DNA of 64,000 nucleotides from Tachypleus tridentatus (lineage: Eukaryota > Arthropoda > Merostomata > Xiphosura > Limulidae), in the NCBI RefSeq assembly GCF_004210375.1, contig NC_134837.1, positions 15,011,798-15,075,797 on the forward strand. Direction: 5' to 3'. Under the pieces are notes generated by a model that saw only the letters and a list, made by a program, of their open reading frames with translations, did no database searches and had not been told where the DNA came from. The number at the start of each line of letters is the position of its first letter. The first letter of the stretch is position 1. The translations under genes were made by a program, and so were the position numbers. Positions 2,592 to 36,500 of this stretch are shown here, piece after piece.

Positions 2592-2597
2592 TTTATT
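2592..2597 (-). promoter_or_regulatory. candidate polyadenylation signal of the hnRNP M-like gene
   Basis: AATAAA on the minus strand, about 930 nt after the stop codon. Others occur nearby (about 2516), and the true 3' end could be further left. The 3' UTR between here and 3528 is AT-rich and shows no convincing ORF. Confidence 0.3.
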
Positions 2598-3528
2598 TAA
2601 AAAAAAAACTACGACTTAATAATTGAAGGCAACACTAAAATGTTGACACATCTACAAAGTACAACTGATATGAAATGACGCAAGGAAAAAAAAAAGATAT
2701 TCTAACAAGAAAAGCATTTCCAAAAACCAAATCCACAAAAATCAAGACAACAGAAAGATTATAGTATTAACGTTTTAATACACCAAGATCAAGCACTGAC
2801 ACAAACAAAAATGTTCACCTTGTAAGTGAATTGTTTCTTTTATAGATACATAATTTTCAAGTTTAACAATAACAGCAGATAGTTAAACACCTACTAACAC
2901 AAGACACCTTAAATAAAGACTATACAGTTACATTTACTTTAAAGTGATACAAAGCAATCATACTCTAGGTGTCAAGACAAAACTGATATGTGAATTGTCC
3001 CAACATGTTTTCATTACAACTACTATAATCCAGCATTCACAAAACATTTACTATAATGAATTTTGTTTTTACAGAAAGGCAACTAAAAACACCATCTACA
3101 ATAACAACTACCAGTGAAAAGTTTAGATTACAAGCTATATTAACTCAGTCACAAAAATTAGGATTATACACTACTAACAACTACAAAACTTGTACACGCC
3201 CACTACTTTTTAACCAAATTGCAACCTTGCTTCAATAAAATCCACTGACATCAGGTCTTCTAATCTTCCACAGGATGTTATTGAACAGTCTATGACAACA
3301 ACAAAAATAATTAAAAGACCACAGCTAATTTTCAAACAGCTCCAATATGAAAACAGCCATTCTTTTCAACAATAAAATACATTTTAAAAAAAGGATCCCT
3401 TTACTGGTGTTCAAATGAAAGAAGTTCCACAAACAAAAAGTAAACAAAGATGATTCCACGAATAAGAAAAATGCAACAGGTGTTAAAACCCTGGCAGTTT
3501 CAAACCACTGAAATATGCAATAAGAAGT

Positions 3529-3584
3529 TCAGTACAAGCGAACCTGAATTGGGCGACCGTCGATGCGAATTCCATTCATTAAAT
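3529..3584 (-). CDS. HNRNPM: hnRNP M-like exon 14: end of RRM3 and stop
   Basis: The acceptor is ATAAATTCAG. The exon encodes DLMNGIRIDGRPIQVRLY and then TGA (3529-3531). This corresponds to MMNGMKLSGREIDVRIDRNA at the end of human hnRNP M. The 3' UTR follows at lower coordinates. Confidence 0.92.
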
Positions 3585-6500
3585 CTGAATTTATGTCAAG
3601 AAATTTTCACATTTTACATTAGATATATTAATCTTAATATAATATATTACAGTTTAATACAGATGATGTGATATAATTTCACAAATAACAATATTTTCAA
3701 CTGAACCTTAATGTTTTAACAAAAAATAACAAGAATGCTCATCTTATGCAATGACATTTGACTTCAGACACAAGGTATCAGCAAAATCTAACTCAAATAC
3801 TAAAACTGACATCTTATACAATTTTATTAAATGTAATATAAATATTTATTACAATATGAAGTTTTGATATATTTTATTTTTAGAACCTATCTAGTAAAAA
3901 AAAAAAAAAAGTACTACAATCCATGTATGCACCAAAGACTTTAGATAGGTATAATATATTATCCACTCCTGTTTTTCTACATTCATAAGTAGGGCTATTT
4001 CAAATAGTCATCCCTAGCTTTGGCCTTTCCAGTCCTGGTTTTGGATTATGTGTCATTACAGCCATTATCAAAAGGTAAAGTAATAAAATATTTAAAAGAC
4101 ATGTAGCAAAATTGTAATAATCATTTGCGAAATGATTTTGGTAAAAGATATACTAGTTGTGAACTTTTATCCAAGATTCCTTCTGGCTTTGACGTCTTAC
4201 CCACTTAGCATGTGCATGAGCCTGTTGGAAAGAGATACGGTTTGAAAGTGTGGGATATTTACAGAAATTATCCCAGGCCCATTTTTGAGCCTTCTATGCC
4301 ATGTGGCAGGCAGGATTCCACCACGGATGAGGATATCATGGAAAACGTGTTGAGGGTTTAGGAATACACTGAGCAGCTACTTGTATGATAGTCAATAACA
4401 GCACTTCCCCAGAAGGGATGACGTCCATTTAAGTCCTCCAGGATTAGAAAGGGAGACGGCAACTGTTCAATGAGAACATCAAGGTTTGATTGATCATATG
4501 TCTCTCCAGGTGACAGGTAGAGAGAACAAACAATGAGTTTATGACCCAAGGAAACACGGATGGCTATGGCCTCCAAGGGTGTGTTGAGTGACAAAGACAG
4601 GGTGGGCACATGCTGATCAACCAACAGAGCCACCCCTCTATGTACTCGTGCATCACACAGCCTGTGATTTTTGTACAGAGAAAACTGCCAAAAGGTGACT
4701 GTATTGGCAGGTTTCAGAAATGTTTCTTGTAAGGAAAGACATACAGGATGGTAGGAAGCAATCAGTGTTTTGATGTCATCCAGATTAGAACGTAAACCTC
4801 AACAGTTCCATTGTATCAAGGTGGGCATTTTTAATGATGGGTAGGCAAAGTGGCTGGAGAACCCTTCTGTTTACTATCACGTCTTTTTTCCTTACTGTCC
4901 TTATTCGGAGGACGTCTATCGACCTTCATGGATCCTGCCCTGAATCGATTGGGCAGGTCTTTGTTGTTGGAAGGGGATTCCAGTGACTGAGGACATGAAC
5001 GAATGATTGTTTTGCATCTTGGGGTGGGAGAAAAGATGTATCTTAAGAAATGCCTGTATCTGAAACCAAAGGATGTGGATCTTGGGGTTCGGTGGAATGT
5101 ATGGGAGGAACAGAGATGGGTGTAGAAGTTGATTCATCAACCTTTTTAACCATGGAGGTCAAAAGGCTTTTCATTTGTTTTGAAAACGATTCTTTTGAAG
5201 ACACAGATAGATATGTCTGCACTCCCACTGTAGTTGTGGAACAAAGTGCAGCAGCATATGTCTGAGATGAAGTGGCAGACAGCAATTTTCAAGCCTCAGG
5301 ATAACTAATGTTATGAGTCGTTTTCAAATGCTGCACCTCTTTTTCCTCCAACCATTTCAGGCAAGAACAAAAGTAGGAAGGGTGAGAACCATTGCAGTTG
5401 ACACAATGTGGGTCTGTTTCACACTCATAGGCATCGTGGTCCTTGCCATCACAACGCACAACGAACATATATCAGGGAACCAAGACATGACGTCTTTGAG
5501 TGACCGAACCTCTGACATTGGAAACATCGGAAGGTTTGGAATGTACAGCCGTACCCTGCAATTTAGATAACCTGCCTTGATAGTGATGTAAATGTCAAAA
5601 CAAGGATATTTGTCGGCAGTGTAACTCCATCTTTGTGGGTGGTGATGCGCCTCACTGCAGAAACTTGAGTGGAGAAACCAGAGAAAATCTCTGTCTTGGG
5701 GACGTTCTTCAAATTCCTCTCAACAATAACTCCTCGTGATGAATTCAAGGTAGCATGAGGGGTAACCTCAATAGGTACATCCCCAAATGTCTTTGAATTC
5801 AAGAGGAGTTCACTGTGTTGGGATGTGGATGTTTCAACCAATATGTCTCCAGATCGAAGCTTCTTTACTGACTTTGGAAAGCCAGCAAGTCCCTCTGGTC
5901 TCTTCTGAATAAAAAAGGGGGACATTTGCCCTAAAGGTTTATCTGAAAGAGAATGTAATATAAGAAAATGGGGTACGTGTGTTACAGATGTTGAAGATTG
6001 CTGCTCAGAGTCTTCAAGACGTGGGTTATTTACCTATTGACTGCTTTTTCACTATTTTATTTAAATTTTTCGTAGGAGGATCCATAGGAAAAAAGGAAAA
6101 TTTCGGTACACACTGACCCCACCCACCATGGAGCCCTAGAAGGGGATGCACTACAATGTCATGCAAGGACATTGCAGCAATGCCAGGGTTTTGTGAGCAC
6201 TATACCCAAACACCAGCATCAGACACAATGTCCACAACACCCATTTAGAACTTCCAACAGTGGTACTTAGTTGACTAGTCCAAGTGGACCAGCCGATTGA
6301 CCCAAGGGAGGCCAACCCAAAGGCTGCCCGTCTACAGGAATTCAAGGCCAAAGTGGTGTGTTAGAGTTGGATCCCTCAACCACCAGGATCCTCTCCTTCT
6401 CTTCATGGGTTGCCATGCACAGCAAACATGTGGGTGGATGTTTAGATCCCAGAGGAGGTAACCAGAAAGAACAGAACCTTCCCTGGGAGATCCCCTCACC

Positions 6501-9500
6501 ACGTACAGGAATCCACACCAAGAGGCAATATGCACATAACTATAAACTTTTAATTATGAAATGTACACAACCCTAATTTAAAACTCACACACTACAGTTC
6601 TACAATATGTATTTCTACTCAATATGAACGCAACTACAAACATTTAATTATAAAACCAGAACCAAATCCATCAAACACTAAAAGGATACCAACAGCCCTC
6701 TGAGCAACTCGTTCAGCTTTAAATCTAATAAGACCAGAGCCACGTCCCTTCATCTCGGCAAACCTTACATCACCTAGGCAGACACATGTCAACAATTACA
6801 ATGGAACCTAACATTAATATCAATTACTAGAGACATCAATAAAACAATTCTCTCTCTAAGTATAAAAAATGTACATGACATAACCAAATTATTTACAGAA
6901 TCACACAATCACGTAATCATAGTAAAACATAGTATACATTCTGCAGAGCTTCAGGTGTCTTTACAAAATTGGGTAAGTTTCACTAAACATTGTCTTTTAT
7001 TTAAAAGAAATAAGGTTTAATTAAATATCTCTACCATTGTCCATAATTATATGTTACCAGAATTTTCACTATTGAGTGCAAAGTAGTTTTCATCTTAAGA
7101 TTAAACAACTTTTCTTCCTCTGAACATTTTCATATTTCACTTGTGCAATCCCTAAAACCTCCTTAGTAAATATATTTTTTTCATAACTAAAATGTAAAAA
7201 TTCAGTGTTCTTGTTGCAAAAGTAATTTGAAAGCATAATATATAGATAACTACACAACCACATTTCAAACTAACTGAATTACTCACCCACATCCCTGAAA
7301 CGATCCCTCAATGCTTGCCATGTGTATGATGCAGGGAGCTATCATTAAACAATACTGTATTAGTTGGAGAATAAAGTGCATCATGTTTTCTTGAATGTGC
7401 TTTAACCCTCAGTTAAATCAAACAATATATAGTAGATTTACATCAACAAGTTTTTAATTCATTAACCATTTAGCACAAAAAAACCCATTAAAATCATTCA
7501 AAATTTGATACAAAAAATACAAAATGGGGAGCATGTTCTTTTAAAATAACTGAACATATTTCTAAGCACTATCCAAATCTATCTTAAACATTTAAAATAG
7601 CTTATGAAATGGAACTTCAGCCATACAGGTCTGTATACTCAAACAGTTTGCATATAATGTTTTTGCAACATCAGAGAAAAAAAACTACTTCCACATAAAG
7701 TTTCAATTAATATGTGATTTTTGGTTTTATACTCTTGAAATTCATTTTTACCACTGAATGTTTTAAAAAACTATACAATTGAATCAACATATTAGGATAA
7801 ATATTGTTTCTGTGGCTGTTAAAAATTATTTCCAAATTGTTAAGTATTTGAGATTTGCCACGATTATGGACCAGGTTCACAAGCAAGAACAAAGTTTAGA
7901 TAAAAAACAACATATTATGCTTCAACAGCACTTCTATAAACAATACACCACTTGTACAGGAGGAAAACAAAATACTGTTTGAGAAAGGTAACTCACATTT
8001 TCAACCATAACTGTGTCTGAACTCTGTGTGGACTGGTTAAAACTTAATCTGTTCATGTCTCCAAAAGACCCTCCAGTGTTGGGGATTCCAGCCCCAAGTC
8101 CTAGAGCTGTACCTGCCCCCATACCTGTTGCTCCACCTCCCATAGCTGCCATCATGTTAGTGTTGGTAGCTAAACCCATGTTAGCTCCAGTTGCTCCAAT
8201 TCCAAGTCCTGCAGCAGCACCCATGTTCCCAGTAAAACCAGTACCCATGGCTGCATTCATACCCATATTACTCCCCATAGCTGTATTTAATCCCATTCCA
8301 CTTACAGATGCCATGGCATTCATATTATTTGCCATCATGTTACCCATATTACCCATGTTACCAGCCCCCATTCCCATTCCCAAATTAGTTGCACCTCCTG
8401 CCATTGCTCCTAAACCACCTGCAATGAGATAAAAAATTATACATACATAAATATAAAAAATGGTTTATGGAAAGGAAAAAAAATTGTACACTAAACAAAT
8501 AAAGGAAAGTTTATGCCCAATAACAAAACAACACTTTTAAATTAACATTTACTGGATCAAGAACTTTGGACAAATAAAAACTCAAAGAAGTATTAGTTAG
8601 TACCTGAGAAGAAATGAACTAATACAATAAATGGTTACTGATAGAACAATTTTACAGGGGTCAGGGGTCAAAAGTTAAGGCACCACATTTATGGACTCAC
8701 ACTCAAAATTTTACCCAACCACTGTCTTATAAATGTATGTCAGTAAGTTTGATATCAAATAATAATTCAAATTTTAGTATTATACACAAGTTACTTTCTT
8801 AATTTCAAAGTAAATATTAAGTATCAATGTGTGTGGGTCATTGGGTATGTCCAATGTAACATTGGTTTGAATTAATGTTCACGTACAATGTATAATTTCT
8901 CATGAATTCAAGACAAATTACCAACAGCGATAAGTTTGACATAGAATAAGAACCTACCACCTTTTCTATTTGCCAAAATACTACTATATTTAGCAAATCA
9001 AAGCAGCCCTACCCACTTCTTCCACTTCTTTGGAAATAATTCCTTTCATACACTGCTTTGCTACTTTATGGCCTTGTGTATAAACAATGAAAAGCTCAAA
9101 ACTCCTCTCATTAATTTTTTTTTTTTTTTACCTTGTTGAAGGTTCCTAAGATTTGTTCTTTTTGTCTTGTTTTAACAAAGAAATGGTAAATGAAAATGTC
9201 TGAAATCTCATAACATTTAGAATCAAATACAACTTAATTTCTAGACCTAAAAATTACAGTAGATATCTGTCATTCATATATTAATTGATTTTTTGTTACT
9301 TTAAAATTGATATATAAAAAAAACCGAAACAAATTACTTTGTTTCACATCCACTACATGCAAAACATGACAAGACTGTGCACATAATTGTGAGCAGCAAA
9401 TTATTATAAAGTTTGTAACTAGAAGAGACAACTGTTCTCTATACTAGAATTTATGTTACACTGTAACTTTCATGTTACACTGGAACATGAAGCCAAGACA

Positions 9501-12500
9501 GGTCTCCTTGTAAGTGCTAGTTTTATACCACTGTATACATGTGCAAAAGCATTGCACCATTGTAAATACTATAATGTTGCTGACATACAGCTGAAAGGTC
9601 AACAAATAAAAATTACATGTATACGTGTGTGTGATGTATAATGTTAAAAAATTTAAGCTATTTAGACCAAATATTAGTTGTAATAACTTGTCTCTTTCTT
9701 TATGGTGGTTACAGGTAATATCAACCAAACCCATACAGAAATATAATATTGAAAATAACAAAATATAGTTTTTTCTAAATAAATGTGTTCAATAATTATC
9801 CACAAATTATAAACATTTTGCACGTAAAATTTGACACTTTTCTAAAAGTATTTTTAATCTTAAAAGCAAAATTACTACACATGTTGGACAATCAACATTT
9901 CAAAAGAAATAAATACGTGAGTAAATCATTATTTCACCCTTTCACAACAGGTTCGGTATGATACACGAGTTCATCTACACATATGCATATTATGTATTTG
10001 CACTATAACTTTTGATACAGCATGTGTATCTTCACAACATTTGGTAGACTTTTAGTAAAGATTACACATTTTTATGTCCTCAAAAGATCGTATTTTTTTC
10101 TTAGATTTGTTTGTAAAAATAGTTTTATTACCAGTCCAAGTGCAAAATAATTTCATGTTATAATTAAAATCTATCATTTGTCACCAGAATCTCAATTATT
10201 ATTTCTGTAATCTCTAAAACCTCCTCAGTACATCTCAAATAATTGTTTTCAACAAGACTTTATACTGTATTTTACATACTCAACCATGTGGAGTCTGTCA
10301 ACTAATCAACCTCATAACCACCATAAAAAACTAGAAATATAACATAGGTTAACCTGAAGATGACCTAAGGTAGAAATACTTTACTTTAATAAAAGTTTTA
10401 ATACCCTAACCAGGCACCTTGATGTACATCTTTATTTCAAGCAAGTTTCTCATCATCATGAAATTTAAATTATTTTTTGTTCTAGAACGACTAGTTATTA
10501 TAACAGAATTGTTTAGTCTAAGTACACTAAGTCTCATAACACTATATATTTATATACATTTCTTATTTTTTTAATATACTAACCTTTCAGTAAACCCTAG
10601 CTAACATTACTTGCATTGATGTGGTGCACATTCACTGATGTTACTGTATTCAACAATATAATGACTACTGGTCTTGCCTGTCTTTGTTCTTTTAGTGGAC
10701 CAGTATTTTGTATTTTACAGTAACATTTAAATTATTACATATATGTACATAGAGTAGAAACAAATCAAACTTTTCTTAAATATATAACAATAAATAATGG
10801 AATAAAACAATCATCTCTTCCAGCTACAACCTCTGGATGCTGCTAAATACAGAGGTAAGTTGGTTGGTTTGATGGTGCAAAGCAGCTAGGCTACCTGCAC
10901 CAAACATCCAGCAAAAAGTTAAAAATAAAATTATTAAAATTTGTAAAAAGAAATCACAGTAAAACAAAAAGCTTAATTTTTGAATTAAAAATATAAATAG
11001 CATTAAATCCAATTCTAATATCTAGTTTAGAACAGTAAGAGAGAAACTACAAGAATGAAAGTTTTAAAAGACTTTCTATAGCATAATTTTAATTATCATA
11101 ACTCACTAGCATGACTAACAGGTCAGTTCAAACACCAGCATTAGATACCCAAACTTAACCTTTCTAGTCCTGGTTTTCAGTTATTTGATGTTACGGCCAT
11201 TTTGTAACTTCAAATCGAACTAATTGTACTTTTAATTGTTAAAAAAGGTCTAATTTATAAATCAAAATCTTAAATAGTATTAAAAAGATGAACAGTCTTT
11301 AAAAAACTAAAAAACATTTGTAAAGTGGACAGTGTCACCATCACAAATGACAGTCTAATGTCATGGATAAACCTTGGGACAAAACATGTTTAAAAAGGTG
11401 TCATCGTTGAGAGAAGTAACTATGGCAAGATAGTAAAATGCGACTTATTGTAACCTGCGTGTCACACAGACAACATATTATTGATGCATCAGTCCAGGTT
11501 TAAAAAAAAAAAGTTGAAAACTGTGACCAATGCGTAGTATAGTTATGACAACTTCCTCTTTCCCATTCTTACGTAAGCAAGTCAGCCAAAGTCTAATAAA
11601 TGGTTTTGTTTGGAAAAGCTTGTTTTGACATTGCTCACTCCAAGTCAACTGCAAACTGGTATTGAGCCAAGCCTTGAATACAGGACCATAGTCCATGTAT
11701 AAAACAAGTACAGCAGTGATAGTACCAGAGCAGACTGCTTTAGTTGCTGTGTCTGTGAGCCTGTTCCCAATAATACCAACATGGCCTGGCATCCAGAAAA
11801 ACTGCATAGAAGTAGATAATAAAAAAAAAATGGGCCAGTCAGTTTTGAGTATCGTTAAGAACAGGATGAGAACTAACATGAAGTGATTCCAGGGCCAGTA
11901 GAGAACAAAGCGAGTCAGCATAAATAGTGCAGTTTGAGCACTGCTTCACTTCTATGTGATCCAGTTCAGCAGTGAATGCACAAACTGTAGAGGGGATTCT
12001 CTGCACAACCACCAAACTACAATAAATCATTGGAGAGCCCACAGCCACCAGATTTAAAACCATCTGTATAAATAGGAATAGAAGGATGGTTTGAAAGATG
12101 TTCAACAAATAAAAGACCCTACTTCCAACTGGGAGTATCTGCTTTTCTCAGATAACTTAAACAAAGGTCACATTTGGAGACTGTAATAAGCCATGGTGGG
12201 ATGGGCTGACCAGAGAATACAGCAATGTTATCCAAGTATAGACCCAAGTCACCCAACTGCAGCTGGATACAAAGGCCAAAAGGAACAATGGCAGAACATC
12301 TGTTCTGAAAAAGCATGGCCCACTGAGGAAGGAAAACACAACCCCAGATGTGATGTTATAAGGATCAAAGTTTAGAAGCATACAGTTGAGACAGTTCCAA
12401 ACGACAGAATCTCAAGGTTCATGAGACGATGTATAAGCTCTGTACTGGGGCACAGGGAACCATGGCAGATTGTTTGTTAGCATTAATTTACACACTGGGT

Positions 12501-15500
12501 GGAAACTCATATAAGCCAGGAGGAAACTGACAAAGGAGGTATAATTACATTGTGAAAGTAACATCCAACACCTTATTTACTGCATCACTGATCAGTTTAT
12601 GATGGTGGTTGTTTGATAAACAGCTCTACACACCAGACATTACCTTCAAAAATAAATGTTTTATGGACTGGAGAAGTGCAGAAAGCCCCGGCACAAAGCC
12701 AAAGTTCCTAATGATGATTGAGGTCCAGCATCTTCAAGGCCGAGGTCCTGGCAGAGGCACAGATCAGTGGCCCAGGGTCTAATTTGATCAAATAAGAGCA
12801 CGATGTATTTTGAGCAAACAAATCAAGCTGTTTCCCAACTGGTGGAAGAGAGAACACAGAAGATGCTCAGTGCTCTTGTACATTTGACTTGTAGCTGCTT
12901 GATGTGTGGTATAATGGTCACCTTACAGTCAAAGATAAGCCCCAAGAACTTTGTCTCAGGGAACACAGGTACCACAACTTCACCAATACAGAGTTCAGGA
13001 TCAGAGTGAATGCCCCATTAGTGGCAAAAGTTCATGCAAATGGTTTGAGAAAGAGAGAGAAGTTAAAACCATTTGTTGTGGTCCACTTCAGTAAATGACT
13101 GAGGGCAGTCTGTAGCTGCAGCTCAATATACCTCATGGTCAACGATTGACATGAGATGTGAAAGTCGTCAACATAGAACTTCCTTCTTACAAAAGTAAGA
13201 GGGAGTTGTTCAGTGATGGCATTAATCTTTGTACTAAAAAGTGTGACACTCAAAACACAGCCCTGAGGGACTCCAAGTTCCCATAAAAAAAACAACAGAA
13301 AATTGTCGAACCCACACACACTTGGAATCACCTGTCCATTAAAAAATTAATAAAAATGGGCAAATGACCATGTAACCCACATAAATGGAGGTCTCACAAA
13401 ATGCCATACCTCCATGTCGTATCACAAGCCTTCTCAAGGTCAAAGAATATTGATACAAGATGTTGTTGAAGAAAGGCTTCTCTGATTGACGCTTCAAGCT
13501 GAATCAGGTGGTGCATGGTGGAACACTGTCATCGGAATCCACACTAGGTGGGCAAGAGGCGATTGTTTGATTTGAGGAACCAACAAAGCAAGACAAGCAT
13601 TAACCATTCTCTCTATGGTCTTACACACACACCTTGTCAAAGCAACTGGATGGTAGTTATACTGCCCATTGACCTTTCAAATCTTATACTATACCACTTT
13701 GGAACTAGTGGTAGAAGATATGCTGGTTGTGAACTTAATCCAAGATTCCTTCTGACTTTGACATCTTACCTGCCAAACACATGCACAGGCCTGCTGCAAA
13801 GCAATGCAGTTTGAGAGTGTGGAATATCTACAAAAAGTATCCCAGGTCCATTTTTGAGCATTCCATGCTATGTGGCAGGCAGGGTTCAACCATGGACAAG
13901 GATATTGTGGAAAACTTGTTGAGATTTTAGGAATACATTTAAGTGTTCCTTAATGTTGGTTTAATTTTGGTTTTAGTTGTTGTAAAAGAGTAGGTATAAA
14001 GGTGTTCCTTTATACCTATACTAATTAATAACCTAACATCCAACTCCAACATCCCCTACAATCCCATATCTGTTTATATTCCCATCCCTAAGATTTGCCA
14101 AGCAACGATAGTTGCAAACTTTCTTTATTAACCTGAAGAGTACCTAGGAAGGTTGAAATGTTCTCTGCTCATCAATAAAAGTGTTAACACCCACACCAGC
14201 CATTCTAAGATTTTTTTTATTTCAAGTGGGTTCCTTGTCATCAAAAACCAACTAGTATTGTTTTAAACCCCCCATTAACTGCTGAACTAAAAAATAATTT
14301 AGCCTCTATTAGATGTCAAAAGGTTTATGGTTTTTAACATTAAAATTTATACTAGAGACATTAAATTAGACTGTTAATCAGTGATTCTGCTGGCAAAGCA
14401 AAATTACTGAAGCTATTGTCTTTAAATCAATTTCAGAAAAGCCCAATGAAATACTGCATTATTTCCTATCACAGTGAAACAAAGCATTACAAGCTGACAA
14501 CATTCTAAATTTTAATTACACTCCTGAAACAATTTAAGACCCAACTGTCAGAACAGCACATTTGGTCACTTGCCTACTATGATCTTTAACTTTACTCTCC
14601 AGTTAGCATAAAAGAGTTGGAAATAGACTGGAATCTAGTTCTTGGAGCAAAATATTAAGATTTTATCAATCAGAACACCCTAGAACCAACAATAAAGGAG
14701 GTTTTGTCTACAAAGGTGCCACAAACACTTTGGTTAAAAACAAAAATTACAGCACCTAATTCTCTCTATATATATAATTTCAGTTGTACAGTGCTAGTTT
14801 CACTCACTGGCTGGGATGATGGATATCTATGATTATTACATGGAAACATACATCTTGATATGTAATCCAATGGTCAACAAAGAATACTTCTCTGTGTACA
14901 ATGAGAGTTGGTGTCTAATGAAGCTATATGTCCAAGTAATTACCATGCAGTCTCTTTTCTCACGTTACAACTCAGTCATTGTGTAAAATTAACAACTTTT
15001 TGTGGTTATCAAGTTTCATTCACCCACAAAAAAAACTAAAATACAAAACATGGTGATATCATACATTCCTTGAAGGGAGTTTTAAACTACCACCAACATT
15101 TATTATGGGAAGCTTATAAAAAGACAATAAAGCTGAGAGTATTACTGTAGTATATTTTAAAGGTGAGGTTATAATGAACTTTTTAAAGGCAATTAGCTAT
15201 CCATAAACTTAACTTCATTCAAATAATAAGCATTAAATCAATTAACAGATTACTTCACAATTATTCATTGTGTATCAATTTATTACTTCAACACAGACTA
15301 TGCTCACTTGACTTTAATAAGTTTAAAGGACATGTTAATGTTTTTGTACTACATTTAATTAGAACAAGCCCTCACAGGACCAAAAACCCTTTAAAAGGAG
15401 AGGATTCTTGAAGTAAATTAACCCCATTTTTCCACCACTTATGTACAAAAGGGCAGTGTCACTCCTCCAACCAAACCATATCCAAAGTTTGATTTTAAGT

Positions 15501-18500
15501 ACACATCTGGATATCTTTTTCTGCTTGCATCTACATTATAATCTCGAAACCTGCCATATAGTTGTGACAGAGCAATTTTCACCAACACTGCAACGAATTT
15601 GGCTAACTTGGATGCAACTGTATGTTTATTGCATTTCACAAAGCTATTCAACCGTCTCTTGACAGCCACCAGCTACTGTGGTAAGTTCAACTGCTACTAA
15701 TGACAAATGTCTTACTCAGATGCTTTTGCCAGATAAGTATTATGTCTCTAGAACCTGAGGTAGATGTTTTAGTGTTAGACTTTCCACAACATGTAATGTT
15801 TGTTTTCTGTAAGACATACTGAGCAACAACAACACACACAATACTTTTCTTGCATTTTATTTCACTTTCTTTTAATATTAAAATTGGTGAACACAAATGT
15901 TTTACAGATTATATTTCAAGAACTGTCAATAGGTAAGAATCACTAATTCAGACATCTCACTGACGTAACTGAATCCATCCAATAACTGTTAACTTACCGG
16001 ATGATGCTCCACCCATTCCTATAGCTGAAGATCCACCAGACACAGCAGCAGATGTGGCTCCTAAATTTGCTACATTAAAAGATTCTGCAAAAAATCCATA
16101 ATTTAATGACAATCTATGAATGTGAATTTTATGAGGAAGTACTGTTATCAAGCTTTGATTAAATTAACCCTAACTTTAATTTTTATCTGTAGAAAACTAG
16201 AATGGATGTTTAGAAGACAACTTTCAGTTTCTGAGAAAAACAAAGTTTGAAATTTCATCTGAAGATTAGATGGCCAACATTATGGACAATCAAAAAAGAA
16301 AGATTAATTTCTTATGACCACTGCCACACATTTCAGTAAAAGTGTTATAGTCTGTATAAAAACTTTTAACATATTAAGTTTGCATTAAAAACAGTTATTA
16401 AATTTTCACTGACTGATAGCTAGCTAGTACTGTAACCTTAGATCAATATACATAAAAAACTGTTACATCTGATGTGATGAAAATAGCTGAATGAATAAAA
16501 CACAATGACATTTAACAGGTTTCATTCCAAAAACATTAACCTTACTAATCAATATCTCTTTCATCAGTACACTAAACTAAGTGGTGCAAATTCTGTGATA
16601 AATCTACATTGTATTTTGTCAAGAAAATCTTAATATAGCTTCAAATTAGACCTGTTAAAAAGCCTTACAGAATATCATGTGCAACACAAAGCAAAAAAGT
16701 ATTTTCACATTCATTTGATTTTTTACATTCTGGCTGCACTAAGAAACAGGAAGATTGTGGTTACAGTTTAAGAATGGAAAGTTCACACCAGTGTATGTTT
16801 AAAAATATAAAAACATTTACATCAAAACAAAGCACACAATTTTAAAATAAAAACACTTTCTTAACTTCCTATTTCACCAGAAAAAGCTAGTCAAATGGTG
16901 CTACAGATACATTAACCACGTTTTTAAAAATTTTGTAACTGAAGTTACTGGTAGTGCAATTAATCAGAAATAAGCTTACAAAACTGTCATCTTATTACAG
17001 GTCTAGCTAGCATGAAATTTTCTATTTATACAGGTACATAAAATAACTATTTTCTGCTCATATTGGACCCTTACTAAAAACAATACTTACTGTTTAAGTT
17101 CAATGGCTGACCACCAGCTCCCAGACCCTTTCCCACACTCTGTAGACCAGCTGAAATAAAAATAATAAAACACTCAATGAAGTGTTTGAAATCTTATACT
17201 GGTCTTTATATGAGTACACAAGTGTCCTTGAAACAAGAATAGCAATCACTCTCGGATATCTCTGGAAGTTACAGTGGAAGTATTAAAAAATAATTTTTCA
17301 TAAAATGACACAAACAACTACATATAAATTGTACACAAAGACAACAAATTTCTGCTGCAATTTAACACTGATAATAAAATTTTCAGAATTTCCTACTTTG
17401 TAACAAATGTGAAAGCACTTATTTCAAGTCATCTAATAATATATTTTGTAAAATTATTCCTAGAGGAAATTTTCAAGTGTGTCTGTATTGTAGGTGACTT
17501 GTATTCAAGTAAAATTTGGAGAACTTCATACTACCAATACTTCTATGTTATATAAATGTGATCCATTTTTATCAGTTGCTTTCAAAGTAAATATAATTTA
17601 ATAGCTGCTTGAAATTTTAGGTTCATCAAACAAGTATTAAGAGGCAATTATCTTCACAAGTTACTGTACCTCACAAAATTTCTGAGTTGTTGCTATACTG
17701 CATACATTAAATTTTCATATAATAGCCATATAATAGAATTTTTCTTTTGTTTCTGATACTTCAGTTTCATATAACCCTTCCACAATGGGCTTGGTATAAT
17801 ACACGAGTTTCTCTACACATTTGCACATTAAGTATTTGCACTATAACTTTTGATATACTATGTACATCTTCACAAAATTTGGTAAACTTTTAGTAAAGAT
17901 TACAAGATTTTTTGAATACAGAAAATCAAATTTTTTCAATTAAAGATTTGTACTAGTCTTAGTACAAAGTGGTTTTGTGTTATGATTAACAAAAGAACTT
18001 CCAAATAATCTCAGATATTATTTGCATAATCACTAAACTTTCCTAAATACATTTCAAATGTTTGTTTTCAGTAAGACTTCATATTTCACGTTACTTTCTA
18101 TACTCTATATGGGGTCTACCACTTAACCAACCTTATAAAAACTAAAAAAAGAAATATATATTTTTTCATGCTAGAATGACTACATATTACACACAAAAAT
18201 ACAAAAGTTTAGTCTATGTAACTTCATGTTTCACAGCACTATATAATTATGTAAATATTTATTTTTTATTATATTGACCTTCCAGTCACACATAACATTA
18301 CATAGCTTGCACTGATATGGTGCATGTACACTCATATTATGTATCCAGTAATATAAAACTGACCTTTAGTCTTCCCTGTCTTGGCTGTTTTAGTAGACTA
18401 ATATTTTATAATATATAATGAATAATAATTGAAATGTGCCTATATGTATTTAGATTATTACTATTTAGAAATAACTTATTAAAATTATTTATCTTAGAAT

Positions 18501-21500
18501 GTAGAACAATAAGCCAAAAAGTAAAGCAAACAATTATCTTTTCTTTCTACAACCTTTGTACTTGATTGCAGCTGGACATTAGTTGTTAAGCTTTTCAAAA
18601 TTTTGTATGAGGCAAACAAAACTTTCAGGTTTTACGTGTGTATGGTATGGAATTTCGCTATAATTTATTAAGCTTAGTAACTAAGATGCATTTAGATTTT
18701 AAAAATAAGAAACTTCGAGCATATTAAAGACAAACTACCTCATTAAAATCTTAAATCAAAAGAGCATGGTAGTCTTTTCAAAGATTAAAATGACTGAGGA
18801 AACAACTCTGGGAACATTCTAACATGTCAATTGGTTACTCACATGTCATACTGAAGTAAATGTATATAATGGACTGTTTCCAAAAATGAAAAGAGATGAA
18901 TGGGACACCACCATGTTTGGTTCAGTACATAAACCATATCTTAGCAAAATAAAAAAATACAAAGTTCTTATTTTATATTCCAGCTTGATAATATTAGTAA
19001 TTTGAATTCTTAATTTGTACAAATTTATAGACTTAGTATTTCTGCATCAAAACCATCTAAATTTAAACACTGTTGCATTCAATATACCATGACTCACTAA
19101 AATATTTGAATTTTTTGTTTTTAATATTTACTTTTAAATTAACTCAAATATAGTGTTAAAGTTTAAATTACTATCTACAATTTGATTCCAAACTTGACAA
19201 ATTCATAAAATATCAGTTCAATAATATTTTGAATGCAAGTCAACAAACATGTTGATGTCCTTTGATCCATGACCTGTAGCCAAAAGGGTTAATATATAAC
19301 AAAAATTTAATTTAAAATTTCAAGGTGCAAGAAACATTAACAAACATATACACAAAAAATTGCCAAAGATATGTAATATTCTGGGTAAAAGTCCAAACTG
19401 AATAATATGCTCTCTACTATTTGGTAAGAATAAAAAAGGCTTACACTTACTTGGTAATTTAGCTGGAAGTCCATCAGATTCATCACTTTTAAATTTGTCC
19501 TGAAACATATCAAATTTACTTATAGAGAAATAAAACTAAATATAAATACTAGCACTTGGCACAAAATTCATAAATAAAATTAAGTTAACAAATTTGGTAA
19601 ACTAAAAGAAGAATACAAAATAAGTCAAAGTCTTTTGTCTTTTAAAACTTAAGATAAAAACAAACTTACCATTCGAACACTCATTGTTCTAGCAAATAAT
19701 TTTTGGCCATTAAACATTGCTGTAAACCAAGTCAAGAGTCAAACTTTATAGACACTACACAATGCAATCTCGAGTCTTTTTTACAATTACACAATTATCT
19801 TCAATCTAAATACTTGCATACAATTCAGTGTTTCAATATTAAGAGGCAGTGAAGGTTAAAAACTACTGTTTATCGTGTGAAACTAAATTTATATCTCTAA
19901 CAGTGAGTATTATACTCAAAATATTTCTGGCAAAAAATGATTCTTTCTTGCAATACAATTTTCATTTACATTTATTTAAAAAAAAATTAACATTTTGTCC
20001 TTACATCATCAATGACAGCTCACATAGATACTACAGCTACAAACCAATGACACAAAGGATACAAATAGCTTGGACAGCTTCCACTGGGTGATCAAAAGTT
20101 ACAGTACCATGACCTTTACTGTTGCCTTCTTCATCTGTCTTTAAATCTATGTTAACAACTTTTCCTGATAACTTAAACACTTCTTCTAATTTCTTACTGT
20201 CCACCTTGTAGTCAAGCTACAACAAACATTAAGACATGTACAAGACCTTATAAACTATTGTTTTTTTTCATCCAGTATCAAAATTCATTAATGACGATTT
20301 GAAAGACTAAACAATTTATCAATTATACAAAATGATCAATCAGAAAAACAATTAAAAACACTACAAGGACACCATGATCTTAAAATATTATCATTTTAAC
20401 CCTACTGTTACATGTCACAAGCCATGTCATCACATTTGTTGATTTCTTTTCCAAGTTTTACTGAACTATTATTTTATGAATTTATGCCAATAGTTTTGAT
20501 AAACATTTTAACCCTACTGTTACATGTCACAAGCCATGTCATCACATTTGTTGATTTCTTTTCCAAGTTTTACTGAACTATTATTTTATGAATTTATGCC
20601 AATAGTTTTGATAAACATTTTAACCCTACTGTTACATGTCACAAGCCATGTCATCACATTTGTTGATTTCTTTTCCAAGTTTTACTGAACTATTATTTTA
20701 TGAATTTATGCCAATAGTTTTGATAAACTGTAGATAATTCAAATTTTAGTGTATTATAATAGTTAATTTCCTAATTTAAAAATAATTATTAGAAAAACAC
20801 ACCTAAATCATTTTTGAGTCACATGGTATGTTGAAAACACCACAAGTTAACTTTATGTCTATGATGTCAAAATACCAAGTCTGTAGTTTTTTACAGATCA
20901 GAAACTCGTATTACCAATATTGACAAGCTAGAACATAAAATAAGAACTGCATACCTTTGCTAGATATCACCATATTTGGTGAACCCACCCACCACTTCAT
21001 CTTTTGAAAATACTTGTTTACCCATACCTACTTCTATTAAGTGTGTTTAAAACCAATTGAAAGAACTCATTTCAAGCCATATAAGCTAGTCAATCAAAAC
21101 ATGTACATGAGTAAAGCCATTGTAACAGCTGAGTTTGAAGTGTCACAAACAAGGCAGTATTTTAATTGGAAATATTTATTTAGACCCAAATACAGCTTAT
21201 GTACAGCCTGATACATTACAGTGGATTTTTGTGGTATCAGTGCACTAATTTATTTTTTGTAACTGAAAAAAATGCACATATAAATAAAATCCACAAAGTA
21301 TTTTTTCACAACTTCCACATTGAAAATATGACAAAGCTTGACACGTATGACACAAGTGCAAAAAACTAATATTGTAACAAGTATGGATTAGTTCTCTACA
21401 TGTATTTATTGTTCTATGCTTTACAAAAAAAACCAAAAAAACTGGAATTTAAGAAATTTATTTTAGAGTCACAAGATACACACACGTTACATAAAGTAAC

Positions 21501-24500
21501 TAAGATGTCACTGTTTTACAAAATAGTGGTAAACTAATGATAAAGATAAGAAATTTATACATTTTAGGCCAGTTTTTATGTTCATCAATAAGGATACATG
21601 AGATGCACAAATGCCACATAAGTAGCTTGTGTGGCAGGGTTATTAATTACATATGGTTCAAAAGTCAATAACTACATATATATATAGTTACAAGCTTTAA
21701 ACTATTTAGAATAAAAAAACTGTGGTTTCCTGTTATGATCTGCAGTTATTTCAGAAAGAAAAAAGTAATTTAGATTTCCTAATTTGTTTACAGTGAGTAT
21801 AAGGTCAGTCAAACCAACCAACCTGGTACACAGTTAAGGTTTAGAAAACATGTGAACTAGAAGAAACAATTGATACTTATCTAAGAGGTTTTAGAGATTA
21901 CATAAATGAAATTTGACAATTTTCTTCAGAAGAAACATTTTTAATCTGAAGATCAGAATTACATGTTGAGTAGTCAATTTTCAAAAAGAAAAATGCACAA
22001 ATCAAATCATTAATTTAAAAAATCTTAGAACAATTAAAAAAACCTAACACTACAAAAACCTCACAATATTTATTGACGATCTTCAAAATTATAAGGTATG
22101 TGTAAATTTCAAAAACTTACAGTATAACTGCCGTTTGAAATCCCCCTACATGTATTAAAAGTGTTAATGAATTTAGAACTTTACTTTTCCAGATTTTATA
22201 GTTCCATATAGACTAAAAGAGTTTGGTAAACAATAAAATGGGTGTTTTTGAAAGACTTACATTAGCAACAAATACTTTACAGGTCAATGGTCCCTGAATT
22301 CCTAAGGATTCTAGAAACTGAGGACTAAGTCCATAGGTGTTGTACTGACTGGACGAACCACTCCCAACTATACCTCCTCCAAAGTTGTTATTCATAGACA
22401 TCCCTCGTTCTCTGCTGGTTCTAGTAATAGGCCTACCGTGTTTGTCTCTTTCTACTTCAAAGTCCTAACAAAAACATAGTACATATTGCAAATAAAAACA
22501 ATAATATTTATTATATTTTTCACAAGTTACCACACGTTTTAAAGATAAAACAATGAGCAGGATAGTGCTACAACAGAAGAGAAACTAACAAATCTCCACA
22601 CACACTAGCTACAAGCAGACTTAAGAACATGCCTCAATCAATTTGCACATCATCTTCCACTGAAAAGTTATATGCAACTTGCATAATAATCTTTACTACT
22701 GCAGCTGAACCTCACACTGTGTATTCACTAAAAATACATATATAACATGCTCTCTTGTTTTCTAAATATAATACACTTTATACATTACATAAAACCAGAA
22801 ATAGTGTGGTATAAAATAAACACGTATCTTGAACAATAAACAAGAAATTAATTTTACTAAAATCTTAAGGAAAAAAGTCCTTGGATCCATCCTCAAGATG
22901 TAGAACATGCTTTAAGTTAAAAAACAAAAGCTCTTAAAAGTGTTTGCAAAAGTTATAAAAACTAAAACATATTAAACAAATCAATTTTTAATACAAATAT
23001 TAAGAGAATAAACTTTTCTTATGGTTCCTTATCCCCTTTTATAAGACTCCTATTAAATTTTGCTACAAATTCCAAAGTTTTTATCTGTTACACAGTATTT
23101 AGTTTTGGCATAAAGATTCTTACAATTGAATTAAAACTCTGATGAAATTTTAAAATTCTGCTGCACAAAATGGTTTAAAAATAAATGTAAAAATTTCATT
23201 TCAACTGTTCCATTTCAAACATCAAGCCATTTCAACTTAATATTTGTTAATATTTTCATATATTTTATGCTAACTGCAATTATAATCACTTCTAGCTATA
23301 AAATGAACAAAACATGGAAAGCAACTAGATTTATTAATGACCTACAACTAGACTTTCCACACTGATGTCAGGGTTACCTTTATCAGGGTAGGTGAACTTT
23401 AACAATATTCTTGTTAAAATTAATTTATATGTAATAAATACATCAGCAGAGTATTTTGCAACCATCCACCATTTTTACAAAACCTCACTAGGATTACCCG
23501 CATGTCTGTCCAATCCTAGACTAATTAAATTTCTATAACCTTCAAACAGACATAATTTAAAATAAAATTTTCAAACTATAAACCCAAATCTAGAGTTGGA
23601 TTTTAAAATATTCTAAACTTCCGATGAGATTCTTATGTTAATCTCTGAACATCTCATTTTTCCACATTTCTCTTACCACTTTATTTACCCTACACACTGA
23701 CAACTAGTTCATAACATGCTCTATCCAACAGTATAAAATTGTGCTTCATTGGTGATTGTGTAGACATGTTGTAGCATCATAAGATAGGTGGGAAAGACTT
23801 TAAAACTTCAGAAACAAAATATAGCTAAGAATGTTCTGAAGGAATAATAGGTTTAGCAAATACACATCTATATTTAGATGGACCAAAAAACATCAACTGT
23901 TTACCATACAAGGATCCTTAAAAAACTACAAAAATGTGCAACAAGTTTTAGTATTTTGTTTCTCTTAGTGAATTACAATAAATCTAACAAAATTACAGCA
24001 ACAAATCTAGTATTTTTGATCGAAAAATTGTTTAGAAATAGAATTATTCTGATATATATGTGCACTACACCCAAAAGGTGTTCACTTCTCAAAACAAGGT
24101 TAAACAAGTTCACAGCTAAGCCTACTTCACCTCTTTAACAACTAAAGTTCTCCCTCTGTATTCATATTTATGCAAGGTATCAATTGCTTTTTGGACTGAG
24201 GCATTGTCTTTCATCTCCACAACTCTATATTAAAAAGAAAATAAATTTGTAATAAGAATGTCTTAGATACCATTAAGCATAGTGAGCTTACTATACTATA
24301 AAAATAAATCAACAATAATATAAAGTAGAACAATGTATAACAAAAATACTGTCTGCATAATTCACTACTGTAAAACCTGTGTATATCTGAAAAGCTTTTG
24401 TCTATCTTCATATGATAAAAGCACAAACTGTAATTTTAAATAAAAGAATGGACAAATATTTCCACACTACACCAAAAACTAAGCAGAAACATTTAAAAAA

Positions 24501-33500: not shown

Positions 33501-36500
33501 CTTTCATCTTGAAACAGTTCTACATAATTTACTTCACCAACTGAAAGAAAGACAGCTGTGAGAACACACAAACATTTTACGTACTTATGTAAAGAGACAC
33601 ACAAGAGCTGGTTCATTAAATGTACATTAATTAATGTATCAACAGTCTCTGGTAGATGAGACCCATGAATTACAGGTCTTATAGAAGATTGAAGGCCTGG
33701 ATTAGAAATTTATTTCAAATCTTGTAGCCTCATACATAACATGACCAAAAATAGTCATTTACGTGGTTTTAGACTTATACCAGACCAACGTAATTCCGGA
33801 AGGCAAAGACTTATCTTTTTCCACTGTTGCAACTGTGACATAAATGGTGGAAACTTTGTGGAAAGCCCATGATTTGTTCTGGTCTTCAAGTTTTATTCCA
33901 AAGCATGTTAAATAAATTTATTTTGACAAATTCTTTTATGTTTTGACTTTGTTTCATTAGAACTAACATAACTGAACATGTTTGGGTTGTTAATATTATC
34001 ATTTATTGGAGCTATTCAAATAATCAAAATATTGCTAGTATGCTTGTTTTTAAGCATAAAGCTGCACAGTAAGCCACTGTGCTCTGTCCATACATCAAAG
34101 TTGTTTCCTGAGCCATGGTTATCAGGAAATGTTTTGTTTCTAGCAGTCTCATAAGAATAAACACTAGTAGAATGTAATCTATCAAATAAAACTCCAACAA
34201 TTATCCACTGGTTACAATCACAACACAGTACAATATCAGAGGTATTAAATATTAGCAAGACTTAGCTAATAATAGACAAGTACAACAACTTCTTTGCCTA
34301 AAGTGCCACAACAAAGTTTTCTTGCATCATTTGTTTATAATGTACTAAAATGCATAAATAATCACATTTTATCTTCAGTACTTTATTTAGTATTTTGAAA
34401 ATTTATTAATACAAACTAATGTGAGAGTCACTGCATTTATAAATCAAATGTTTATTGTATAATACAAACTTTCATTCTTGATGCCATAGGAGTCATATTT
34501 AAAGATTTACACTCACTCCACAAATACCACATCTTTGCATTTATATAGAAACATCAAGATGTTTAATGACTCTCAAAAACAAAAACTTCAACTTTGTTTT
34601 CATTGGAAAACAGAAATACCTGCATGAATTGTATTAAGTTGAATAATGTATATTTGAGTAATCAGTACTAACATCTTGAAAAATTCTAAATCATTTTTGA
34701 AACATGCTAACTGTAAATGGTTTTAAATATTGAGAACAAGTCAAAGGATTTTGCCAAACAGTAATTAACTTATTCCATTCCACAAAACAAGAAATAAGCA
34801 CACAATATTAAACTACCTGCTGTCATTATTGTGATCATGTTCTGTATTTGTGCTGTTTTGAGGATTACATATTGTAAAATATGAAACTAAATTTCATCAT
34901 ATTGAAGTTACTAGAATCTTTATCTCAAAGATTTTAAGGGTTAAATTCAACCTAGTAAAGCTATCAATTGCTTGTAAAATGTCTTCAAACCTCCAAACTT
35001 GCTACACTCATATTCCTATAGGAATGCTTTCTTTTATCAGTTATTCATGATTGCACCATGAAATAGCCATTCATTGGATTGTTTTTTTTTAAAACATATG
35101 TACTACAACAAAGAAGTAATTTACAAAGTACAAATTTAATCTTACATTAAAACACAAGTTTCCTTTGACAATTACACTCTGTGTAACACAAGACATAATC
35201 CAACCTTTGAACAAGTTAAAAACAATTCCTCAAAGCACTTTACCTTCTTTACGGAAAAGATCTTTAACTTCAGTCCACTTAGATTCATAGGGAATGTTTG
35301 CAACATACACACGATGATTATTTTGACCTCTTGAACTTCTGTTATCATAACGCCCACGACCACCTCTAGATCCATCCCTACTTCCTCTTTCCTTTTGTTC
35401 AACTGGAGATCTGGATCTGGATCTAAATAAATAATAAATCCACAATGTGAAAAAAGGTGACTATTTCCACTTTAAACTACCATTAAAGAAAATTATGCCT
35501 TTGTAACAAATTTATTATGCAATTTAGGAATGGGTCTTTGAAAACTAAAGAAACATTTGCATAAACGAGTTTAGCTTTTGGAATTTTTTAAGACTCAATT
35601 TAGACCAATATTTTAACTAAATTACACAACTCAGCTGGTGTACTTAGAAAACAAAAACCTTACTATAACCATTTTAATTCATTCCTTGACTGGCCATACC
35701 ATCTGCTGTGAACCAGTTTTTGCCTATTCAAGACTTCCCAGCACAGCATGGGTCAGCAAACCAAATACACTTATGCTTCTTAAAATGGTCATTTTACAAA
35801 ATTCATAATGTTTTTTAACCTTTTTTAATTCACTACATAGTATCATAAATTAATCAAAGTGTATCAATAACAAATAAAAACAGTTGGTCTACTCTATAAT
35901 ACTGAATAAATTAGGTATTATGTAAAAACAGTTGGTCTACTCTATAATACTGAATAAGTTAGGTATTATGACATTATTCACACACACATTACATTCCTAC
36001 AGTATGACAGAAAGGTTTTGTTTATGTAGCAGCATGAAGCAGACTTAACTTTTATGCACCTAAATGTGTTAAGTTTTGCACCACCAGTGCTACAATGTTA
36101 AGTTAGCTCTTACTGATCTTGTTGAACAAAAAAACTGTCAGAAAAGGTAAAACAATACATGTATAAATTAATGTATGAAATGGCTTTAAAATTTCTTAGG
36201 TACATTATGAAACATTTAGAGTAAAAATGTTTTTAACAATTTATTGTAATAATGTTATTGCTATATACCACTTATAATACATACAGTAAATTGCTTGTGA
36301 GGTTTACTGAATAAAATTAGATAGTTCACAGCATTATAAATTTAAACAATGTGGAAAGGAAAGATCTTTTCATGTTTTCTTAACATGAAATATCACATCA
36401 ATTCAAACTTTTGGTTCCAAATTTACACAAATATCACAAAAACAAGTTTCAGATACATCACCAATAATTTTTTCTATATTGCTATAAAACATGTAAACCA

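What the first reader, a model, noticed from the sequence alone, without database searches (positions are those of the whole stretch)
3585..20062. Paired U12-type introns at the same position in RRM2 and RRM3 of an hnRNP M-like gene
Of 13 introns, only two have donor GTATCCTTT (intron 6 at 20062 and intron 13 at 6689), and both have a TCTTGAC branch element 12-13 nt from the 3' splice site. Both fall in phase 1 after the equivalent alpha-2 residues (QAI and RAV). RRM1 has no intron there. This suggests the minor-class intron predates the RRM2/RRM3 duplication, or was constrained at both sites. It would also make a splicing regulator's own mRNA depend on the minor spliceosome at two points.
Basis: partly seen in the sequence, partly recalled or inferred. 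Interest (0 to 1): 0.8.

Follow-up and report, generated by a model that had tools for sequence, protein, structure and literature searches.

The report
Twin minor-class introns in repeated RRMs
An animal gene for an RNA-binding protein of the hnRNP M type carries two introns of the rare U12 class at exactly matching places in its second and third RNA-binding domains, and two related genes in the same genome carry the same pair, which suggests the rare introns are old and were copied along with the domain.

Summary
Confirmed and strengthened. I placed 12 introns of the minus-strand hnRNP M-like gene. Ten have ordinary donors (eight GTRAGT). Intron 6 (20062-19720) and intron 13 (6689-3585) have donor GTATCCTTT and a TCTTGAC branch element. 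Both are phase 1 at the same column of RRM2 and RRM3. The donor 9-mer alone is as frequent as chance (2 found, 1.98 expected); its position and partner signals carry the weight.

Best reading: the introns came through RRM duplication rather than two insertions. Against: a weak domain tree joins RRM1 with RRM3, no second species was examined, and the human HNRNPM figure legend I read marks one U12 intron. Splicing itself is untested.

The parts
20063..20216 (-). Exon 6: RRM2 from LDYKV to ...VEAVQAI plus first base of the Ser codon
   Evidence: human HNRNPM RRM2 (PDB 2do0) aligns without a gap across the exon 6/7 junction with VQAISMFNGQ identical
19720..20062 (-). Intron 6, U12-type GT-AG, phase 1, 343 nt; donor GTATCCTTT, branch TCTTGAC with 12 nt after the A
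   Evidence: same site and class in loci C8 and C4
19670..19719 (-). Exon 7: rest of RRM2 alpha-2 to beta-4 (SMFNGQKLFARTMSVRM)
6690..6773 (-). Exon 13: RRM3 from GDVRF to ...AQRAV plus first base of the Asp codon
3585..6689 (-). Intron 13, U12-type GT-AG, phase 1, 3,105 nt, last intron of the reading frame; donor GTATCCTTT, branch TTTCTTGAC with 11 nt after the A; holds what looks like a retrotransposon remnant
   Evidence: same site and class in C8 and C4
3529..3584 (-). Exon 14: end of RRM3 (DLMNGIRIDGRPIQVRLY) and stop codon
   Evidence: PDB 2dh9 and 2dgv, HNRNPM RRM3
20217..22260 (-). Intron 5, ordinary GT-AG, phase 0, after RNP2 of RRM2 (KVFVAN|L)
7339..7996 (-). Intron 11, ordinary GT-AG, phase 0, after RNP2 of RRM3 (VMVEN|L): same column and phase as intron 5
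19500..19669 (-). Intron 7, ordinary, phase 0, at the end of RRM2 beta-4 (MSVRM|D): same place as intron 4 in RRM1
22465..24130 (-). Intron 4, ordinary, phase 0, end of RRM1 beta-4 (LVVKE|D)
33541..35243 (-). Intron 2, ordinary, phase 1, RRM1 (KE|VGEV); one codon from intron 12 in RRM3
6774..7286 (-). Intron 12, ordinary, phase 1, RRM3 (DV|GDV)

Best explanation
Introns 6 and 13 are genuine minor-class introns removed by the U11/U12 spliceosome. They descend from one U12-type intron in an ancestral RRM-coding unit that also had ordinary introns at other positions. When the RRM unit was duplicated to build the three-RRM hnRNP M gene, the introns went with it; RRM1 later lost the alpha-2 intron, while RRM2 and RRM3 kept it. 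The pair was then copied with the gene, so that three loci of this genome carry it. Functionally (inferred), each intron must be removed to complete the last part of its RRM. Keeping intron 6 puts a stop after 8 codons with many exon junctions downstream, so nonsense-mediated decay is predicted. Keeping intron 13, the last intron of the reading frame, puts a stop after 18 codons with no known junction downstream, so a protein with a broken RRM3 is predicted. Shown: sites, class signals, presence in three loci, shared positions. Inferred: actual use by the minor spliceosome, and the order of duplication and intron gain.
For: Donor, branch and phase in the window. Two divergent paralogues with both introns at the same codons: GTATCC in 6 of 6 introns, CTTRA branch core in 6 of 6 with 10-14 nt after the A (read by eye from the rows). 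The last 40 bases of intron 6 are 31 of 40 identical between C8 and C4, against 14-21 of 40 for five ordinary introns (a sixth, intron 3, gave 12 of 40 with a boundary a few bases off). One U12 snRNA hit (127.7 bits) with GAGTAAGGA, and two U11 hits (94.4 and 84.8 bits) with AAAAAGGG at the 5' end. RRM2 and RRM3 share 2 of their 3 intron sites exactly; random placement gives this in 4.6e-4 to 4.7e-4 of 400,000 trials, and 3 or more exact coincidences over all RRM pairs in 6.6e-4 to 8.3e-4. No BLAST similarity between introns 6 and 13 within or between loci, so no sign of recent copying. Published: one clear-cut U12 gain was found in a multi-genome survey, losses being far commoner (PMC2831892, passages); parallel gain accounts on average for about 8% of shared intron positions between species (PMC3488318, passages).
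Against: A domain tree of 14 short sequences joins RRM1 with RRM3 (88/87, drawn open), with RRM2 on the other side near yeast PABP domains. The human HNRNPM figure legend marks a single U12 intron (PMC10853781), so one of the pair is absent, converted or unrecognised there, or gained here. PMC3488318 also says that ancient eukaryotic paralogues lack conserved introns (passage), so sharing between old duplicates is not the norm. The last 40 bases of intron 13 are only 13 of 40 identical between C8 and C4. All three loci come from one genome and count as one lineage. No RNA evidence.
Confidence: 0.6

Rival explanations
1. Independent origin: one of the two is the old U12 intron shared with vertebrate HNRNPM/MYEF2, and a second U12 intron was gained at the matching site of the other RRM in or before this lineage, for example at a favoured insertion site or by copying between the two domains.
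For: One U12 intron is marked for human HNRNPM (PMC10853781, legend) and one is named for mouse Myef2 (intron 8, PMC5063418); which domain these lie in I could not tell. A reconstruction hints at some minor-intron gain in the chelicerate ancestor (PMC10639083, passage), though this organism is not identified. The domain tree does not support RRM2/RRM3 as sisters.
Against: RRM2 and RRM3 also share an ordinary phase-0 intron site, which a U12-specific gain does not explain. No similarity between the two introns. Clear U12 gains are very rare (PMC2831892).
Confidence: 0.27
2. Constraint at the site: RRM alpha-2 exon sequence favours intron presence and U12 retention at this position in any RRM, so the match reflects site preference rather than descent.
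For: The last exon bases are alike at both sites (GCNNTTT at RRM2, GCWGTTG at RRM3). The census of other RRM genes in this genome that would test it did not complete.
Against: RRM1 of the same three genes has no intron there.
Confidence: 0.1
3. The introns are ordinary U2-type introns with chance resemblance to U12 signals.
For: The donor 9-mer is no more frequent in the window than in shuffles; intron 6 has only a partial match to the long branch consensus; ordinary-looking GTRAG sites lie 39 and 58 bases into intron 6 and 101 bases into intron 13 of the window gene.
Against: Positions +4 to +6 are all wrong for U2 donors. GTATCC is kept in 6 of 6 introns at three loci and branch cores in 6 of 6. 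The C8 and C4 introns, 4 of 6, have no ordinary-looking donor from 60 bases before to 120 after the site. The exon 6/7 junction given by GTATCC reproduces the human protein exactly.
Confidence: 0.03

Closest known systems
U12-type intron of human HNRNPM and mouse Myef2 (intron 8)
   Same: Same gene family; a minor-class intron bound by ZRSR2 in human cells (PMC10853781, section 15 and Fig. 4 legend read) and reported as U12-dependent in mouse Myef2 (PMC5063418, passages seen).
   Different: One U12 intron is marked or named there and its domain is not stated in what I read; here there are two, at equivalent sites of RRM2 and RRM3.
[quoted passage not shown]
   Same: Two minor introns in one gene, in most mammalian members, with copies multiplied by gene duplication (PMC2831892, passages seen). 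That these proteins have repeated domains is recalled.
   Different: Whether the channel introns sit at equivalent repeat positions I did not read (Wu and Krainer 1999 not held). Here the repeat is an RRM in an RNA-binding protein.
Minor introns in general (pan-eukaryotic survey PMC10639083; passages and section 24 read)
   Same: Phase-1 bias in animals and plants, conversion from minor to major, density of about 0.3% in vertebrates; Limulus and arachnids named as relatively rich.
   Different: What I read does not treat minor introns shared between repeated domains of one protein.

Membership tests
U12-type (minor-class) introns | Donor [AG]TATCCTTT (consensus recalled) | tested here: met
   Exact in both window introns, 4-6 mismatches in the other 10; GTATCC in 6 of 6 introns over three loci, with GTATCCATC and GTATCCTTC in the C8 copies
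U12-type (minor-class) introns | Branch element near TTCCTTRAC some 10-20 nt from the acceptor | tested here: met
   CTTRAC with 12 and 11 nt after the A in the window introns, 2 of 12 introns; CTTRA core in 6 of 6 over three loci, final C in 3 of 6 (by eye). Intron 6 differs from the 9-mer consensus at 3 positions
U12-type (minor-class) introns | Host genome has the minor spliceosome | tested here: met
   U12 and U11 snRNA hits over the Rfam cut-offs; U6atac did not complete, U4atac and minor-spliceosome proteins not asked
U12-type (minor-class) introns | Removal depends on U11/U12 in cells | not testable with these tools
   No RNA data
hnRNP M family | Three RRMs with a long Gly/Met-rich stretch between RRM2 and RRM3 (layout recalled) | tested here: met
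   Pfam RRM_1, three stretches, E 3.4e-46; exon 11 codes a G/M/N-rich stretch
hnRNP M family | Best sequence match to HNRNPM domains | tested here: met
   PDB 2do0 (RRM2) first, E 1.5e-25; 2dh9 and 2dgv (RRM3) third and fourth, E 4.3e-13 and 8.4e-13; a yeast poly(A)-binding protein with four RRMs ranks second, E 2.2e-22. No HNRNPM RRM1 chain is among the 60 of 123 hits shown
Introns inherited through domain duplication | Domains share several intron sites, of both classes | tested here: met
   RRM2/RRM3 share two exact sites, RRM1/RRM2 one, RRM1/RRM3 one within a codon
Introns inherited through domain duplication | Domain phylogeny places RRM2 and RRM3 together | tested here: inconclusive
   RRM1 groups with RRM3 at 88/87, an open fork on short sequences with long branches; so a direct RRM2-to-RRM3 duplication is not claimed, only descent from a shared ancestral RRM unit

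The most novel reading that the evidence does not exclude
The three RRMs keep parts of one ancestral intron set (RNP2 phase 0; alpha-1/beta-2 phase 1; alpha-2 phase 1 of U12 class; beta-4 end phase 0). The U12 intron would then be older than the expansion of RRMs that made hnRNP M, a relic of minor introns datable within one polypeptide. Its persistence at two sites of a protein whose human form is enriched on U11 snRNA would allow the protein to sense minor-spliceosome activity through its own transcript.
Probability: 0.35. Interest if true: 0.75.

Novelty: new variant of a known kind. Interest (0 to 1): 0.5.

Why it matters
Minor introns are hard to date because they are lost or converted independently. 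A pair at equivalent places in repeated domains of one protein gives an internal clock: if both descend from one intron, it must be older than the domain duplication. The gene product is itself linked to the minor spliceosome: human HNRNPM is enriched about eightfold on U11 in eCLIP (PMC7137325, passages seen), though the same passage says preliminary analysis found no specific change at U11/U12 introns on knockdown. A feedback loop is therefore testable but not shown.

Tried and rejected
Rejected: ordinary introns with chance signals; recent copying of one intron into the other, as BLAST finds no similarity between introns 6 and 13 in any of three loci. Considered and not settled: RRM2 and RRM3 as direct sister domains (leans to RRM1+RRM3, weakly). 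Led nowhere: viral contigs for other hnRNP M genes (no relatives confirmed); Rfam scan of the window (0 matches); papers on rumpelstiltskin with U12 and on U12-type with domain duplication and intron position; one search listed three papers that I judged from titles and did not open. The ten paper searches and the papers opened from them showed no paired U12 introns in two RRMs of one gene; supplementary tables could not be opened, and most subscription papers are not held. The human intron's domain could not be identified from the text read.

Known faults of my own steps: the acceptor printed for the tandem C13 copy is a failed lookup, so for that copy I rely on its donor and its exon 14. One search used approximate boundaries: the donors of introns 2, 11 (C8) and 12 and the C8 acceptor of intron 3 are off by some bases; only the last-40 figure of intron 3 is spoilt by this, while both intron 12 ends are short by the same base. 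One search also found one 40-base BLAST match inside ordinary intron 5, so conserved stretches are not confined to U12 introns. C8 exon 10 and C4 exons 8 and 10 were not located.

Unfinished: U6atac (RF00619), the RRM census (PF00076) and the coagulin family (PF02035), meant to hint at the organism, did not complete; the species remains unidentified.
Full report
What is there. The minus strand carries an hnRNP M-like gene. I placed exons 2 to 14 between 35422 and 3529, choosing the exon ends by eye; they give an open reading frame of 516 residues ending in a stop. Pfam finds three RRM_1 domains. By sequence the best solved relative is human HNRNPM RRM2 (2do0, E 1.5e-25); HNRNPM RRM3 (2dh9, 2dgv) ranks third and fourth behind a yeast poly(A)-binding protein with four RRMs. 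Human RRM2 aligns without a gap across the exon 6/7 junction, with VQAISMFNGQ identical, which fixes that junction. Exon 1 was not found.

Intron class. Of 12 placed introns, 10 have ordinary donors, 8 of them GTRAGT without mismatch. Introns 6 and 13 alone have GTATCCTTT. The same two of 12 have TCTTGAC in the branch window. At minus-strand AG sites of the window this occurs in 6 of 3,688 cases, those two included. The donor motif by itself is not rare in the window (2 matches, 1.98 expected). With a 9-base branch consensus intron 13 has one mismatch, but intron 6 has three, and 6 of the 10 ordinary introns do as well or better; for intron 6 the branch evidence rests on the CTTGAC core.

Paralogues. 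The window lies in a 2.17 Gb genome at C13:15011798-15075797. A protein search gave 7 matches: the window's own three, two of a tandem copy nearby, and one each on C8 and C4. Around the last two I found further exons of related genes, with identities to the window protein between about 36 and 81% per exon match. Both carry both introns at the same codons: C8 intron 6 GTATCCATC with TCCTTAAT; C8 intron 13 GTATCCTTC with CCTTAAA; C4 intron 6 GTATCCTTT with TCCTTAAT; C4 intron 13 GTATCCTTT with GCTTAAC. The split codons are Ser at the RRM2 site and Asp at the RRM3 site in all three genes. The six intron lengths run from 343 to 3,105 nt. Between C8 and C4 the last 40 bases of intron 6 are 31 of 40 identical, against 14-21 of 40 for five ordinary introns; intron 13 gave only 13 of 40, its branch element lying at a different distance. 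The donors of the other introns that I saw in C8 and C4 look ordinary; C8 exon 10 and C4 exons 8 and 10 were not located.

Minor spliceosome. The genome has one U12 snRNA hit (127.7 bits, cut-off 53) with GAGTAAGGA, and two U11 hits (94.4 and 84.8 bits, cut-off 39) whose 5' ends read AAAAAGGG. That these segments pair with branch and donor is recalled knowledge. U6atac did not complete.

Shared intron positions. On a MAFFT alignment of the RRMs made without intron data, the alpha-2 U12 site falls on column 59, phase 1, in RRM2 and RRM3 of all three genes. RRM1 and RRM2 share a phase-0 intron at the end of beta-4, and RRM1 and RRM3 have phase-1 introns one codon apart (columns 24 and 25), close to an alignment gap. 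RRM1 has one further intron of its own (phase 2). Under random placement of three introns in each 70-codon RRM, two or more exact matches between RRM2 and RRM3 arise in about 4.6e-4 of trials. This test was made after seeing the pattern and ignores insertion preferences, so it is a guide, not a strict probability.

Reading. Descent of these introns from an ancestral RRM unit explains both classes of shared site at once. A U12-only gain at one RRM would leave the RNP2 match unexplained. Against descent through a direct RRM2/RRM3 duplication, the domain tree, built on short sequences with long branches, joins RRM1 and RRM3 at 88/87. The simplest reconciliation is an intron set older than all three RRMs with different losses; RRM1 would have lost the U12 intron. 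A review notes that ancient eukaryotic paralogues generally lack conserved introns (PMC3488318, passage), so this would be an unusual survival.

Consequences of retention (stops from sequence, effect inferred). Read-through into intron 6 meets a stop after 8, 12 and 12 codons in the window, C8 and C4 genes, and into intron 13 after 18, 7 and 28. Short read-through is expected in AT-rich introns and is no evidence of regulation. Because intron 13 is the last intron of the reading frame, its retention is predicted to escape junction-dependent decay, unlike retention of intron 6.

Known background. Human HNRNPM has a U12-type intron contacted by ZRSR2 (PMC10853781, section 15 read). Mouse Myef2 intron 8 is called U12-dependent and is retained after SMN depletion (PMC5063418, passages). 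HNRNPM is enriched on U11 in eCLIP, 8.1-fold in K562 and 7.6-fold in HepG2, without a specific knockdown effect on minor introns in preliminary analysis (PMC7137325, passages). [quoted passage not shown] So a U12 intron in this family is known; the matched pair in RRM2 and RRM3 I did not find in the ten searches made.

Verdict. A real and well-formed pair of minor-class introns, present in three loci of one genome, most likely inherited with the RRM unit. Confidence is limited by the lack of RNA data and of any second species.

Noticed in passing
window 709-12326; genome C13:14949798-14962640: A tandem copy of the gene's 3' part (exons 11-14 with the U12 donor of intron 13) lies some 61-63 kb downstream on the same strand, 96.4-99.0% identical over four blocks. 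It may be a segmental duplication offering a second RRM3 end, or an uncollapsed haplotype in the assembly.
   Followed up: partly
window about 4100-6500, 11478-13400 and 27040-27830, minus strand: What look like remnants of a non-LTR retrotransposon family inside introns 13, 10 and 3, with broken coding stretches; the second and third are related (82.9% match of 26858-27781 to the tandem copy of the second). Classed by eye only.
   Followed up: no
window 54701-55423, plus strand: Two adjacent reading frames resembling a Tc1/mariner-type transposase; named from recall, not searched.
   Followed up: no
window about 20390-20710, minus strand: Three near-identical tandem copies of a unit of roughly 120 bases within intron 5, seen by eye.
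   Followed up: no
window 6773-6690 (RRM3): RRM3 of all three paralogues lacks five to seven columns of the loop before RNP1 that human HNRNPM RRM3 or RRM2 has.
   Followed up: no
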